Source of the DNA: Nitrosopumilaceae archaeon
Lineage (GTDB): Archaea; Thermoproteota; Nitrososphaeria; Nitrososphaerales; Nitrosopumilaceae
DNA length: 64,000 nucleotides
Direction: 5' to 3'
NCBI GenBank assembly: GCA_022823825.1
Contig: JAJEHG010000051.1
Location: forward strand, 1 to 64,000
The position numbers and the translations under genes are program-made. Positions within the stretch are counted from its first letter, which is position 1; the number at the start of each line of letters is the position of its first letter. A model generated the notes under the pieces. That model was given only the letters and a program-made list of their open reading frames with translations. It was not told the DNA's origin and ran no database searches. This document shows positions 1-19,930 of the stretch, in pieces.

Positions 1-46
1 TTAGTTCACCGGGCATCAAATCCCATACTTTTGGACGTACAAACCC

Positions 47-1294
47 CTAACCATGATCCTTCACCCTTTGTGAATAAGAACCCTTTCCAGAGTCGCGGTG
101 CGTGCTTTTTTCTCCCTCCGCCACGCAGGTCCAAAAGTTGATGTCCTTTTTTAGCATCCAGAATATTATCGTGAGCATCTTGGCGGCCGCTGCAACCCTT
201 GCCTTTGACGTGCCCCGCTTCCTTGCAAGCCGCTCATAAAACCTGCTGACCGGGGTGCTCGTGTTGGAACTCCTTGCAAACGAGGTGTGCACCAGCACCG
301 CCTCCGTGAGAAGGTGTCTCACCAGTGAGTTTCCGGCCTTTGTTATGCGCCCGTGGTGGACCATGCTGGCCGAATTCCTCACTGACGGGACCAAGCCAAA
401 GTACGACGCCAGCTGTCCTGCACTTGAGAACCTGGAGATGTCTCCAATCTCGGATGCCAGTGCAAGCGCGGTGATATTTCCTATTCCCGGGATTGTCGTG
501 AGAATCTTTGCGTGGTGGTTTGCAGCCATGGCGTCGTTTATCCTTGCATCGCAGTCCTCGACGTCCCCGTTCAGGAACCTGATTGCGTCAATGTGCTTTT
601 CGATCCTCCAGTCGTCAATCTTGTGCAGTTCCGCCATGAATCCGGCCGAGAAGGGCTTTCCAGCTATCTTGGTTCCGTTCTGCAGCAGTATGGAATGGAC
701 CAGATTCTTGCGCTTTGTCCTTTCCCTCACAACCCTGTCCCTGTACCGGACAAGCTGCCTTTCCTCCACGGTCATCTCCTCTGGCACGTAGCATCCTGCC
801 AAGTATCCACCTCGAAGCAGGTCTGCCAGCGCCACGGCGTCCACCTTGTCCGTCTTCTTTGTTGACTGCGCAATGAGCCTTGTTGTCAGCGGATTTGACA
901 GCATGACGTCCAGGTTGAGATCGTCCGTAAGAAACCTGTACATGCCGTACCACACAGAGGATGACTCCAAGACGTACCGGGCATTTGCAGGAATCTTTGA
1001 GAACTCTTTTTTGACGGTTTTGCGGCTGCACTCGATCCTGTCGTTTCTGAGAACCCTGCCGGCCGAATCCATCACGGCCACTTGCATGAATACCTTGTGC
1101 AGATCAATTCCGACAAAATACCCCGGCTTGTTGTTGGGGGTCTCTTCTATGACCGTCTTGGCAGTCTTGCGTTTGACAGTCTTGACAGCCATAGGGCCGT
1201 CCCTAGTGCGCCGGCCTGCTTTTAGTGTTTCTTTTCCGGATTGGCCATGACGGGTACCATCCGAACTCTTCGTCTGCGGGATCTTCTTTGCCAC
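47..1294 (-). CDS. IS110-family DEDD transposase
   Basis: This is a 415-residue recombinase for RNA-guided insertion of its own element. The RuvC-like N-terminal domain has GIDLHK at residues 62-67, a candidate Glu at 110 and KTDKVDA at 147-153. The C-terminal transposase_20 domain has IPGIG at 268-272 and GRITKAGN near 315-322, all family hallmarks. The GTG start at 1294 gives a Lys/Arg-rich extension; ATG at 1192 would give 381 residues and is equally compatible with the family. No frameshift or internal stop is present, so the gene looks intact. It is less GC-rich than the genes to its right. Confidence 0.93.
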   Translation of the reverse strand: MAKKIPQTKSSDGTRHGQSGKETLKAGRRTRDGPMAVKTVKRKTAKTVIEETPNNKPGYFVGIDLHKVFMQVAVMDSAGRVLRNDRIECSRKTVKKEFSKIPANARYVLESSSVWYGMYRFLTDDLNLDVMLSNPLTTRLIAQSTKKTDKVDAVALADLLRGGYLAGCYVPEEMTVEERQLVRYRDRVVRERTKRKNLVHSILLQNGTKIAGKPFSAGFMAELHKIDDWRIEKHIDAIRFLNGDVEDCDARINDAMAANHHAKILTTIPGIGNITALALASEIGDISRFSSAGQLASYFGLVPSVRNSASMVHHGRITKAGNSLVRHLLTEAVLVHTSFARSSNTSTPVSRFYERLARKRGTSKARVAAAAKMLTIIFWMLKKDINFWTCVAEGEKSTHRDSGKGSYSQRVKDHG

Positions 1295-1454
1295 ATATGG
1301 TTAGTCCAACTCAAAAACAAACGTTGGGCGCTAAAAGGTAAGAGTTCTGCAACAGGTTTGACAGTATTTCGCATACTGGGAAAAGCTGAAGTGGAAGAGC
1401 TGAAAAATAATAAAGGTTACTGAAATACAAAAGCTAGGCCACATATTCCAATGG
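1295..1454 (-). ncRNA. Candidate IS110 bridge-RNA leader region
   Basis: About 160 bp of AT-rich non-coding DNA lies between the transposase start and the putative right border. In characterised IS110-group elements such as IS621, the bridge RNA comes from the non-coding end upstream of the transposase and is of similar length. I see no open frame here that explains the conservation of space. I did not derive a secondary structure or guide loops, so this rests on position and family knowledge only. Confidence 0.3.
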
Positions 1455-1460
1455 TTAGTT

Positions 1461-1620
1461 TATTGCAGATCTAAAACAGCTATGCAAAATTCTACAAAAG
1501 AGAAAGACGTCCGTCTCGATTCAAGACGTTACCAAATACCTTCAGAATGAATGGAAAAAACTATTTACAAAGCAATTGGACTGAATTGGAAAAGATGTAC
1601 AACGACAGAACATAATAAAT
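1461..1620. other. AT-rich spacer without recognisable gene
   Basis: Together with 1295-1460 this makes a gap of more than 300 bp before the next gene. It is A-rich, unlike the GC-rich surroundings. I see no tRNA, convincing open frame or long inverted repeat in it. Confidence 0.6.
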
Positions 1621-1630
1621 AAATAAATAG
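1621..1630 (+). promoter_or_regulatory. TATA element of the 1652 gene
   Basis: The last of several AAATA repeats is centred about 26 nt before the ATG at 1652, the usual spacing for a leaderless archaeal transcript. Confidence 0.5.
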
Positions 1631-1651
1631 AGCGGGGATGGTGCTGGCAAT

Positions 1652-1906
1652 ATGACAAAAATGATTCAAGTAAATCTTGAAACAGAAGGTATTGACAAAG
1701 ATGAAGCACAGGAATGGGTGCATGAAATTGCCAATATCTACGCCGATATGGAAGTATCCGACGTAAACATATCCGGAAACACGGTTTCTTTCCAAGCCGG
1801 TCTTTCTGGGATGGACGACACAACTTCGGAAGACATAAGACAAAAGATCGACGAGTATAGTACCATGAACGAAACGCTTCAGATTAAAAACGTCTCATGC
1901 AACTAA
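1652..1906 (+). CDS. Small acidic protein of unknown function
   Basis: This 84-residue acidic protein has no signal peptide, membrane segment or cysteine pair that would point to a function; I do not recognise it. The predicted pattern is a strand, a helix around residues 15-30, two strands near 35-50 and a second helix near 58-70, a small alpha/beta fold. A TATA-like AAATAAATAG sits 26 nt before the ATG and a T-rich stretch follows the stop, so it looks like a complete one-gene unit. Its codons are more AT-rich than those of nearly all other genes here, so it may have arrived with, or been exposed by, the adjacent insertion sequence. Confidence 0.65.
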   Translation: MTKMIQVNLETEGIDKDEAQEWVHEIANIYADMEVSDVNISGNTVSFQAGLSGMDDTTSEDIRQKIDEYSTMNETLQIKNVSCN

Positions 1907-1915
1907 ACCAAATTC

Positions 1916-1950
1916 TTATCTTTTTATGACACAAGGCAATAGGCCTTGTG
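1916..1950 (+). terminator. T-run plus hairpin after the 1652 gene
   Basis: A CTTTTTATG tract is followed by a perfect 8-bp stem: CACAAGGC at 1930-1937 and GCCTTGTG at 1943-1950, with a 5-nt loop. Archaeal RNA polymerase stops mainly at T-runs. The hairpin could act for either strand, as the next gene converges from the right. Confidence 0.4.
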
Positions 1951-2074
1951 CGCAATTAAAGAAAAGCATGAGTTCACGTGGCTTTACCCCAATGCTAGAG
2001 GTATTTTGCCATCTCTGCCAGGTGATCCAGTCCGCGGTTCTCCCACGTAGTAAAACACGTGAAGATGTTGCCCA

Positions 2075-2527
2075 TCACACCACGCCGCCGCCACTGTCGT
2101 CGCCGTCACCGTCAAGCCACGCGTCCGCGGCCCCGAGCACGCCCGCCGCCGCGGGGTACGTGACCGCGCGTACCGCGTCGCCATACTCCTGCCACGCGTA
2201 GTCCTGGTGCTCGTCGGACAGCGTGACATCCCTTGTTCTGGTCACCCCGAGAAAGAACGTCACGGTCTTGTGCACCGCGTCGCTGCCGTCCATGAACTCG
2301 TACTCGATGCTCCTTGCAAAGCCCTCGTGCAGGGACACGTCTGAAATCCCGGTCTCCTCCATGACCTCCCTGAGCGCCGCCTGCACGTCCGACTCGCCCG
2401 GCTCCCTCTTTCCCTTTGCAAGGTCCCAGTGCCCGGCCGCGTACCGGAGTACTAGGTACAGGCGCCTCGGGCCCCGCATTACGTACAGGACGACGCCTGC
2501 AGAAATCTCTTCTCGCGCCGCGCTCAC
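2075..2527 (-). CDS. Nudix hydrolase, Ap4A-pyrophosphatase type
   Basis: This 150-residue protein hydrolyses a nucleoside diphosphate linked to another group. The full Nudix box lies at residues 39-61: G-x5-E-x7-REVMEETGI, with the metal-binding glutamates present. The length and the preceding WDLAKGK sequence fit the diadenosine tetraphosphate hydrolase subgroup, but the substrate is not shown by sequence alone. The start is a GTG at 2527 whose GTGA overlaps the TGA of uppS, so translation is probably coupled. An upstream frame extends to 2644 but would lie inside uppS. The Gly/Asp-rich C-terminus is typical of this genome. Confidence 0.88.
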   Translation of the reverse strand: MSAAREEISAGVVLYVMRGPRRLYLVLRYAAGHWDLAKGKREPGESDVQAALREVMEETGISDVSLHEGFARSIEYEFMDGSDAVHKTVTFFLGVTRTRDVTLSDEHQDYAWQEYGDAVRAVTYPAAAGVLGAADAWLDGDGDDSGGGVV

Positions 2528-3318
2528 CGCCCAAGCCTCCGCCTTCTCTTCTGGAACGTGCGGATCGCCCTCATCAGGTCTATCTTTCTGAACTCGGGCC
2601 AGAATATGTCCATGAATACAAGCTCGCTGTACGCGCTCTGCCACATCAGAAACCCGCTCAGCCGCTTCTCGCCGGACGTGCGAAGTATCATGTCCGGCGA
2701 GGGCTGGGGCAGGTGCGACGTGTAGAGGTTCGACTCTATCACGCCCCTGTCAATCTCGTCCACCTTGAGCCTGCCCTCCCGTATCTTCTCCCCTATCTTT
2801 TTCACGGCGTCGACCATCTCGTACTGGCCCCCGTACGCAAGAGCTATGTTCAGGAACCGGCTGTCATACCCCTTGGTGGCCTCGTCAAGACGGTGCAGCA
2901 CGTCGCGTATCGTATCCGGAAGCATCCCTATCCGCCCAATCGCCTTCACCCTCATGCGGCTCCGGTGTATGCGCGGGTCGGCCAGCAGCTTTTCAAGCCT
3001 GGCCCTTATCAGCTCAAAGAGGTCCTGCAGCTCCTGGTCGTTTCTTGACAGGTTCTCCGCCGAGAGCGCGTACAGCGTGACTATCTTGATGTCAAGCTCC
3101 TCGCACCAGTCAAGCAGGTTCTCGACCGCGTCGGCGCCCCTGCCGTGCCCGTCACTTGTCATTGTAAGGTGGCGCCTTGCCCACCTGCGGTTGCCGTCAA
3201 GTATCAGCGCCATGTGGTTCGGTATGTCTCCGGCCCTTATCTCGCGCTCAAGCCTCCCGCTGTACAGGCGGTAAAAGCCAAAGAGGCCAAACGCCGCACT
3301 CCTTATGCCGCCTGCCAT
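2524..3318 (-). CDS. uppS: Cis-prenyltransferase (polyprenyl diphosphate synthase)
   Basis: This enzyme extends an allylic diphosphate with cis isoprene units to make the polyprenyl carrier for glycan transfer; in archaea the product is normally a dolichol-type lipid. The signature DGNRRWAR is at residues 41-48, with Asp41 the catalytic metal ligand, and the conserved C-terminal RTSGEKRLSGF and ELVF-x-FWPEF regions are intact. Length (264 aa) is normal. ATG 3318 lies 26 nt after a TATTATAA element; a TTG at 3327 would be too close to it. It follows the DUF373 gene by about 36 nt and is coupled to the Nudix gene. Confidence 0.93.
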   Translation of the reverse strand: MAGGIRSAAFGLFGFYRLYSGRLEREIRAGDIPNHMALILDGNRRWARRHLTMTSDGHGRGADAVENLLDWCEELDIKIVTLYALSAENLSRNDQELQDLFELIRARLEKLLADPRIHRSRMRVKAIGRIGMLPDTIRDVLHRLDEATKGYDSRFLNIALAYGGQYEMVDAVKKIGEKIREGRLKVDEIDRGVIESNLYTSHLPQPSPDMILRTSGEKRLSGFLMWQSAYSELVFMDIFWPEFRKIDLMRAIRTFQKRRRRLGR

Positions 3319-6590: not shown

Positions 6591-6734
6591 ATGGTTGAAG
6601 CATACTGCGTCAAATGCAGAGCAAAACGAGAGATCAAGGATCCGCAAGAGACCCAGCTGAAGAACGGACGACCAGCCGTCAAGGGCACCTGCCCCGAATG
6701 CAGTACCGGGGTCTTTAGGATCGGAAAGCCATAA
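6591..6734 (+). CDS. DUF5679-type zinc-ribbon protein
   Basis: The 47-residue protein has two cysteine pairs, C6-x2-C9 and C34-x2-C37, a small one-zinc ribbon. The opening AYCVKCRAKRE and the middle NGRPAVKGTCPEC match the short DUF5679 domain found in archaea and some bacteria. Its role is unknown; nucleic-acid or protein binding is a family-level guess. The ATG is 28 nt after CTATATAC, giving a leaderless mRNA. It precedes aIF2-beta in the same direction but has its own promoter. Confidence 0.8.
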   Translation: MVEAYCVKCRAKREIKDPQETQLKNGRPAVKGTCPECSTGVFRIGKP

Positions 6735-18690: not shown

Positions 18691-19011
18691 ATGGCGGCCG
18701 ACTCGCTCAACCTTGACGTGCACATAATCGGGATAGGGGGCACGCAGATGGCCGCCAAGATAGACGGCACGTTCACGCTTGACGGCACCCTGAAGTTTCC
18801 ATTTGAGGCCATAGCCTTTGGCAGGATAGGCGGGCAGAACATAGGGGCCAAGCTGTCAGAGTCGACGGAGTCGGGCCTGAGGGAGGCAGGATACGATCCG
18901 GACGAGGTGGTAATGCAGCTGCAAAGGAGCCTGCTGCAGGGTGACCTGACGCTTCCGGAGGGGCTGTCGCGGGAGACGTTTGCAGATGACGCTGATGCCG
19001 GTGGCAGCTAG
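18691..19011 (+). CDS. Unknown small protein
   Basis: A 106-residue protein with a beta-rich start (LNLDVHIIGIGG), the segment GTFTLDGTLKFPFEAIAFGRIGG, and an acidic helical end around DPDEVVMQLQRSLLQG. No signal peptide, metal site or known domain is visible. ATG 18691 is 4 nt after the previous stop with GAGG just before it, so it is the second gene of an operon. A frame extending back to 18616 would overlap the previous gene by 70 nt. Function unknown. Confidence 0.6.
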   Translation: MAADSLNLDVHIIGIGGTQMAAKIDGTFTLDGTLKFPFEAIAFGRIGGQNIGAKLSESTESGLREAGYDPDEVVMQLQRSLLQGDLTLPEGLSRETFADDADAGGS

Positions 19012-19135
19012 GTGCTGGCGGCGATGACCGCCGCAGGCACGACCGTGGCGCGCCATAGCCGGATGCCGTACCGTGACTGCCGCGACTAGCAGCCGGCAGC
19101 CACAGCCATGATCGCCGGCGCTCACGATCCCCTTT

Positions 19136-19930
19136 CTAGAACTCCGCCTCGCCGAGCGCGCCGGCGCACTGGCATCCGCGCTCGGCGGGTATGTGGCTTA
19201 CCAGCTCCGCCAGCAGCGCCTTTGTGCGCTCCACGTTCCTTGAGAGCGTCTCCATCACCTCCTTTGCCGTCACCGGCTTTTCGGCCCACGCGTCATAGTC
19301 GGTTATGGTCGACACCGACGCATAGCACATCTGGGCCTCCCTGGCAAGCTGGCATTCGGGCACCAGCGTCATGCCGATTATGTCGGCGCCGAGTCCCCTG
19401 TACATCTTGGACTCGGCCTTTGTGGAGAACCGCGGGCCCTCTATGCACACATAGGTCTTGCCCGCCTTCAGCCCGATGCCCCGCTTGCGGGAGGCCCCCG
19501 AAATGGAATCCTGCAGTTCCGGGCAGAACGGGTCGGCCATAGATATGTGGATGACCCTGCCCTTCTCAGAGAACGAGTACTCCCTTGACTTTGTATAGTC
19601 GATATACTGGGAGGGCATGACAAAGTCGCCCGGCCTTAGCTCCTCCCTCAGGCTTCCCACTGCCGACGGCGCTATTATGCGCGTGACGCCCATCTGCCTG
19701 AACGCCTCTATGTTGGCCCTGAAGTTTATCAGGTGCGGCGGAATCCCGTGCTTTCTGCCGTGCCTTGGGAGAAATGCGACCCTTCTGCCCTGGAAGGTCC
19801 CGACCGTAATCGCGTCGGACGGGTCGCCGTATCTGGTGCCGACCCTTACCTCGCGCGAATCCTCGAGCATCTCCGAGTCGTACAGCCCGGTTCCCCCGAA
19901 TATCCCAATCTCCGCCGTGTCCCCGTCCAT
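19136..19930 (-). CDS. mtnP: S-methyl-5'-thioadenosine phosphorylase
   Basis: This enzyme cleaves methylthioadenosine with phosphate to adenine and methylthioribose 1-phosphate. The start [11 protein letters not shown], the phosphate-site region [16 protein letters not shown], the purine-site region ETRFS-like [13 protein letters not shown] and the [10 protein letters not shown]-terminal helix place it in the MTAP branch of the purine nucleoside phosphorylases. Length (264 aa) is normal. It lies 36 nt downstream of apt, which uses the adenine released here, so the two form a salvage pair. Some archaeal members act on inosine or guanosine. Confidence 0.92.

What the first reader, a model, noticed from the sequence alone, without database searches (positions are those of the whole stretch)
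1..1460. IS110 element with a candidate bridge-RNA leader and matching TTAGTT borders
Seen: an intact DEDD transposase, TTAGTT at 1-6 and 1455-1460, and about 160 bp of non-coding DNA upstream of the transposase. Known: IS110-group elements produce a bridge RNA from that position. Inference: this may be an archaeal RNA-guided recombinase with its own guide in a high-GC symbiont genome.
Basis: partly seen in the sequence, partly recalled or inferred. Interest (0 to 1): 0.6.

Follow-up and report, generated by a model that had tools for sequence, protein, structure and literature searches.

The report
Archaeal jumping gene with RNA guide
The contig starts inside an archaeal jumping gene whose enzyme is very probably steered by a guide RNA, but the guide lies after the enzyme gene (mostly cut off here), not before it as first thought; the supposed leader is the tail of a host gene that the element split.

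Summary
The window opens inside an IS110-superfamily element of the IS1111 type. The DEDD transposase is real (47-1294, minus strand); the borders and the leader are not. The left end is at 1303, fixed by other copies and by a TAACCATATGTG terminus shared across Nitrosopumilaceae. Bases 1304-1423 are the 3' end of a host gene that the element interrupts. Base 1 is the contig end and cuts the element inside its right-end RNA. Contig C46 carries the missing end: joining the two flanks at one TA restores the gene in frame.

The bridge/seek RNA lies downstream of the transposase. It has two guide loops, 12 base pairs with compensatory changes, and target and donor guides that match each element's own flanks better than other elements' (permutation p about 1e-5 and 1e-3). 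The guide order is that of IS1111; the IS110 order gives no signal. Twenty held-out loci score 8.0/9 on the right target (shuffled 4.8). The window's truncated guide matches the C46 flank 9/9.

New details: a TATA-like box at a fixed place in the right end and a GTG start 9 bases inside the left end, so circle closure would form a leaderless promoter (inferred). Known kind; archaeal members newly dissected as far as the papers searched show.

The parts
1..1303 (-). Part of an IS1111-type element: complete left end and transposase, right end cut off by the contig start; full length estimated at about 1.46 kb
   Evidence: Copies in the same genome begin homology at TAACCATATGTGG; window base 1 is contig base 1; intact relatives C55a and C55b are 1474 and 1479 bp
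1302..1303 (-). TA core dinucleotide at the left junction
   Evidence: Shared core in copies; one TA restores the host frame
1290..1297 (-). Left half of the subterminal inverted repeat, TATGTGGC (partner GCCACATA in the right end on contig C46)
   Evidence: 8/8 inverted match, fixed offsets
47..1294 (-). DEDD/serine recombinase (transposase), 415 aa, GTG start 9 bases inside the left end
   Evidence: Pfam PF01548 and PF02371, NF033542, D64 E110 D149 D152 S308, same GTG in 14 copies
1..52 (-). First half of the bridge/seek RNA; overlaps the transposase stop codon; cut at the contig end
   Evidence: Covariance model match 17.2 bits, E 0.0058, truncated at the 3' side
26..34 (-). Right-target guide, CCAAAAGTA
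   Evidence: Pairs 9/9 with the C46 right flank TACTTTTGG; other right ends score 3-7
11..24 (-). Small hairpin inside the target loop, GGGATTTGATGCCC
   Evidence: Position and form shared with other copies
2..9 (-). Left-target guide, GTGAACTA
   Evidence: 6 of 7 positions match the left flank plus core TGGACTA
1304..1423 (+).
   Evidence: In-frame rejoin with contig C46 and gap-free intact homologues at 49-57% identity

Best explanation
This is an archaeal IS1111-type element encoding a DEDD/serine recombinase and, directly downstream on the same strand, a bridge (seek) RNA. Inferred mechanism: the ends join into a circle; the junction places a TATA-like box of the right end about 31 bases before a GTG just inside the left end, so a leaderless transposase message that also contains the RNA is made. 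Loop 1 of the RNA pairs with a target around a TA/TG core (5' guide with the right top strand, 3' guide with the left bottom strand). Loop 2 pairs in the same order with the donor junction (left end and right end). The recombinase then exchanges strands at the core. In the window this placed the element inside a small host gene. Shown by sequence comparison: borders, insertion site, RNA structure, guide-target and guide-donor matches, box and start positions. Inferred: circle formation, transcription, RNA binding and catalysis.
For: Borders from copies. In-frame empty site from contigs C7 and C46 with intact homologues and the only 9/9 guide match. RNA covariation: 97.6% of cells pair, 12 pairs changed on both sides, 0/500 shuffles, same stems from RNAalifold. 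Guide matches: right target 7.56/9 against 4.56, left target 5.72/7 against 3.92, p 1/100000 each; donor guides p 66 and 78 in 100000. Reversed (IS110) order null. Twenty held-out loci 7.98/9 against 4.84 shuffled. The model finds the RNA just downstream of transposases in distant archaea. Fixed TATA-like box and subterminal repeats.
Against: No RNA or activity data. The window copy lacks half of its RNA and its right end, and the C7/C46 join is not sequenced across (about 20 bases missing). C55a matches its right flank poorly (5/9), and L198 and L199 are weak (5.5 and 6 of 9). L038's 3' donor guide does not match well (3/7). Single-sequence folds of the RNA are not more stable than shuffles (z -0.90 and +1.17). 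Copies within G060 families share ancestry, so they are not fully independent.
Confidence: 0.9

Rival explanations
1. One reading: an IS110-group element from 1 to 1460 with a bridge RNA in an upstream leader at 1295-1454.
For: TTAGTT is present at both places; IS110-group elements do carry the RNA upstream (PMC11208160).
Against: Other copies and relatives end at TAACCATATGTG; 1304-1423 is host coding sequence; no unusual fold; no model match there; TTAGTT at chance frequency; IS110 guide order null.
Confidence: 0.02
2. The downstream region is only a structured terminus bound by the protein; targets are chosen by the protein, not by RNA pairing.
For: A conserved terminus would be needed in any case; there are no RNA data.
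Against: Stems covary as RNA, with 15 G-U cells that would be A-C mismatches on the other strand. The loop segments follow each copy's own flanks, including co-change in G060: guide AAATATAT with target TGTATTTAC, and AAATGTAT with TGCATTTAC or TACATTTAC.
Confidence: 0.03
3. The element is as described, but contigs C7 and C46 are not two sides of one insertion, so the host-gene reading rests on a false join.
For: The junction is not sequenced across; several copies share the same right end.
Against: One continuous frame across a single TA, gap-free homologues in the genus, and C46 is the only right end with a 9/9 guide match. The left border at 1303 does not depend on the join.
Confidence: 0.05

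Closest known systems
IS1111 group with seekRNA (ISEc11, ISPa11, ISKpn4, ISPst6; Siddiquee et al. 2024, PMC11187229)
   Same: RNA downstream of the transposase; [quoted passage not shown] subterminal inverted repeats; circle-junction promoter (there shown, here inferred)
   Different: Archaeal; TATA-like box and leaderless GTG instead of -35/-10; longer transposase with an N-terminal extension (about 360-416 aa against 330-350); motif GLVPSVRNSA instead of GL-P----S(t)G in the window copy
IS621 and the IS110 group with bridge RNA (Durrant et al. 2024, PMC11208160; PMC11208158)
   Same: DEDD plus serine recombinase; one RNA with a target loop and a donor loop, each with two guides that include a core dinucleotide
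   Different: There the RNA is in the left end and the guide order is reversed; core CT instead of TA/TG
ISCro4 transposase (PDB 9t56)
   Same: Homologous over residues 59-387 (E 3.5e-11)
   Different: Distant bacterial sequence

Membership tests
IS110 superfamily (DEDD recombinases) | RuvC-like DEDD domain plus Tnp domain with conserved serine | tested here: met
   PF01548 and PF02371, NF033542 above cut-off, D64 E110 D149 D152 S308
IS110 superfamily (bridge RNA) | RNA with target and donor loops complementary to own target and own ends | tested here: met
   on relatives and on the first half of the window copy
IS110 superfamily (bridge RNA) | RNA expressed, bound to the enzyme, required for recombination | not testable with these tools
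   No RNA-seq or assay available
IS1111 group | Long non-coding region with the RNA downstream of the transposase | tested here: met
   in the window only the first 52 bases
IS1111 group | Top-strand complement precedes bottom-strand match in the RNA | tested here: met
   Order tested both ways
IS1111 group | Subterminal inverted repeats of 7-17 bp | tested here: met
   8 bp for the window element (left end C7, right end C46); 5-8 bp across the set, so some relatives fall short
IS1111 group | Transposase of 330-350 aa with GL-P----S(t)G motif, in the IS1111 branch of a tree | tested here: inconclusive
   415 aa and GLVPSVRNSA in the window copy; GLVPSTHSSG in L013; no tree with reference proteins was made
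IS110 group (IS621 type) | Bridge RNA upstream of the transposase | tested here: not met
   Left border at 1303 with the GTG 9 bases inside; upstream bases are host gene

The most novel reading that the evidence does not exclude
Archaeal IS1111-type elements form a distinct variant in which circle closure builds a TATA-box promoter for a leaderless recombinase message, and the recombinase stop codon commonly lies in the first stem of the bridge RNA, so that translation and guide-RNA maturation are coupled on one transcript.
Probability: 0.35. Interest if true: 0.5.

Novelty: new member of a known kind. Interest (0 to 1): 0.38.

Why it matters
It gives a comparative dissection of bridge RNAs in archaea, with borders, empty site, guides and donor matches worked out and tested against shuffles. 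It indicates that the same RNA layout reaches from ammonia-oxidising archaea to Archaeoglobi, Thermoplasmata and methanogen relatives. One genome (G060) holds at least 28 copies at many sites with co-changing guides and targets, a ready natural data set for targeting specificity. Programmable recombinases are of practical interest, and archaeal ones are little described in the papers searched.

Tried and rejected
Upstream-leader bridge RNA: rejected on borders, host coding sequence, fold and model. TTAGTT as a terminal repeat: rejected, chance frequency. Rfam: no bridge-RNA match in 1-3000, only a sub-threshold RsmY hit. IS110 guide order: null. For G060 family A I first took the right end to run to GGTCTA; homology of the terminus (CACATGGATA) and the guide matches put it 13 bases earlier, making TGCATAMGGTCTA target sequence. 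Viral contigs: one distant relative only. Search for 1290-1680 in relatives: only weak, short matches. Neighbouring genes of the window did not lie within the short homologue loci, so gene order could not support the join. No structure prediction was run because the fold was not in question. No protein tree against IS110/IS1111 references was made because reference proteins were not at hand.

Full report
1. The transposase is real: 415 aa on the minus strand, 47-1294, with both IS110 Pfam domains, NF033542 'IS110 family RNA-guided transposase' at 243 bits, and homology to the IS621 and ISCro4 enzymes of known structure. The catalytic set is D64, E110, D149, D152, S308, which I equate by motif with D11, E60, D102, D105, S241 of IS621 (PMC11208158). 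TTAGTT is at both stated places, but it is no more frequent than chance (6 against 9.4 expected).

2. The borders. Window base 1 is base 1 of contig C7, so the window alone cannot show a border there. Other copies in the same genome (C55:26131-, C55:29411-, and a C29 fragment) all begin at TAACCATATGTGG, and relatives in other Nitrosopumilaceae and order-level genomes have close variants of it. The left border is therefore at 1303, not 1460. Four contig ends in the same genome (C47, C46, C14, C45) share one right end up to CACATAGATA and then differ; the assembly broke inside this repeat.

3. What the 'leader' is. The window's right-target guide (CCAAAAGTA, 26-34 minus) predicts a flank TACTTTTGG. 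Contig C46 has exactly that after its right end (9/9; the other right ends score 3-7). Joining the C7 left flank, one TA and the C46 right flank gives the open frame MREYEAYDVKARKKVKILEPKVVQLKNKRWALKGKSSATGLTVFRILGKAEVEELKNNKGY. Relatives encode gap-free intact homologues at 49-57% identity. So 1304-1423 is the 3' end of a split host gene (weak DUF5679 similarity). It does not fold unusually (z -0.17) and the bridge-RNA model does not match it.

4. The RNA. Downstream of the transposase the copies carry a conserved region. Eleven sequences aligned (A2) support an outer stem, two loop-closing stems and a hairpin inside loop 2: 97.6% of cells pair, 12 pairs show changes on both sides, no shuffle of 500 reaches this, and sliding by 1-3 columns gives 34-44% pairing. 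RNAalifold predicts the same stems unaided. Fifteen cells are G-U on this strand, which favours the strand shared with the transposase. Single-sequence folds are not more stable than shuffles, so the case rests on covariation. A covariance model finds in the window only 1-52 minus, cut by the contig end. In distant archaea it finds the RNA directly downstream of the transposase: L096 Methanophagales, L064 and L041 Thermoplasmata, L042, L043 and L045 Archaeoglobi, L044 Methanomassiliicoccales, and also in one Bdellovibrionales contig, L046.

5. The guides. Each loop has a 5' and a 3' segment around a small hairpin. In loop 1 the 5' segment pairs with core plus right flank (top strand) and the 3' segment has the sense of left flank plus core (pairs with the bottom strand). 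With one representative per group (nine elements, C7/C46 left out) the right-target score is 7.56/9 against 4.56 for other elements' targets, and the left-target score 5.72/7 against 3.92, p 1/100000 each. In loop 2 the 5' segment pairs with the left end and the 3' segment equals the right end plus core, p 66 and 78 in 100000. For example both donor guide and right end read ATGGATG in L014 and ATGGATA in L119. Testing the opposite order used by IS110 gives no signal (p 0.18 to 0.90). Twenty further loci not used to set this up (19 in G060, one in G146) score 7.98/9 against 4.84 for shuffled flanks; for the G146 locus the right-end core was read as one base short and the flank padded by one base in the script. 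In G060 a guide change A to G accompanies a target change T to C at the matching position (L126, L185, L193 against L128, L186, L197). These copies share ancestry, so they are not fully independent. An unoccupied site in G060 (AAGTTC-TG-CATTCACGCAC beside L119) matches the flanks of L126 and L128.

6. Filing. The RNA position, guide order and subterminal repeats (TATGTGGC/GCCACATA in this element; 5-8 bp across the set) are those of IS1111 (PMC11187229; PMC11208160). Against a plain IS1111 label: the transposase is longer, with an N-terminal extension starting at a GTG 9 bases inside the left end, the motif is GLVPSVRNSA, and no tree was made.

7. Mechanism beyond the RNA. Every right end examined has an A/T-rich box (TTTATAAA or similar) at about -23 to -16 from its end. 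In the joined circle this lies about 31 bases before the GTG, the spacing expected of an archaeal TATA box to a leaderless start (own knowledge). This parallels the junction promoter described for ISEc11 (PMC11187229). In intact copies the transposase stop codon lies between -12 and +45 of the RNA start, most often inside the first stem. Both points suggest one message for enzyme and RNA; this is inference.

8. Host. The genome is placed in the same genus as G141, whose locus matches Nitrosopumilus sp. D6 (L037/L118), and in a different genus of the same family from G059, whose locus matches Cenarchaeum sp. MEX2-MAG13 (L039/L120). Window G+C is 54-64%. Whether it is a symbiont was not tested.

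9. Limits. No expression or activity data. The window copy's own RNA is half missing. Hairpin borders in the guide test were set by eye from the structure, after I had seen some of the matches; the held-out set and the reversed-order control are the safeguards. The contig join is strong but unsequenced. The literature search covered open-licence papers only.

Noticed in passing
window 1438-1457 minus: A degenerate left-end-like sequence, TAACCAT-TGGAAT-ATGTGGC, 135 bp upstream of the real left end; zero expected by chance. Possibly a relic of an older insertion.
   Followed up: partly
window 6594-6728 plus: A second, apparently intact paralogue of the interrupted small host gene (51% identity).
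   Followed up: no
G000 contigs C47, C46, C14, C45, C44, C43 (ends): At least six more right ends of this element type sit at contig ends, so the assembly broke at these repeats; C43 and C44 insert next to a 40-bp palindrome.
   Followed up: partly
L126 and L128 (G060): Right ends carry tandem partial duplications of the RNA region bounded by copies of ATAGATG or TG, as if the recombinase had joined the right end to its own donor-guide or transposase sequence.
   Followed up: no
L119 639-760, L126, L128 (G060): Family B copies insert into a short repeat with inverted ends GTATGAGGTCA/TGACCTCATAC, itself present empty beside L119.
   Followed up: partly
L124 (G060), minus strand near 826, 2941, 3322, 3727: A repeated sequence GCAGAAATAATCAAATGTGCCTGAAAC resembling the left end recurs at about 400-bp spacing.
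   Followed up: no
G000:C45:11145-12143 and 18929-19921: Two more distant IS110-family transposases in the same genome (31-33% identity).
   Followed up: no
G000:C55:29389-29400: The left flank of copy C55b, read on the other strand, contains TACTTTTGG, the window element's own right target.
   Followed up: no
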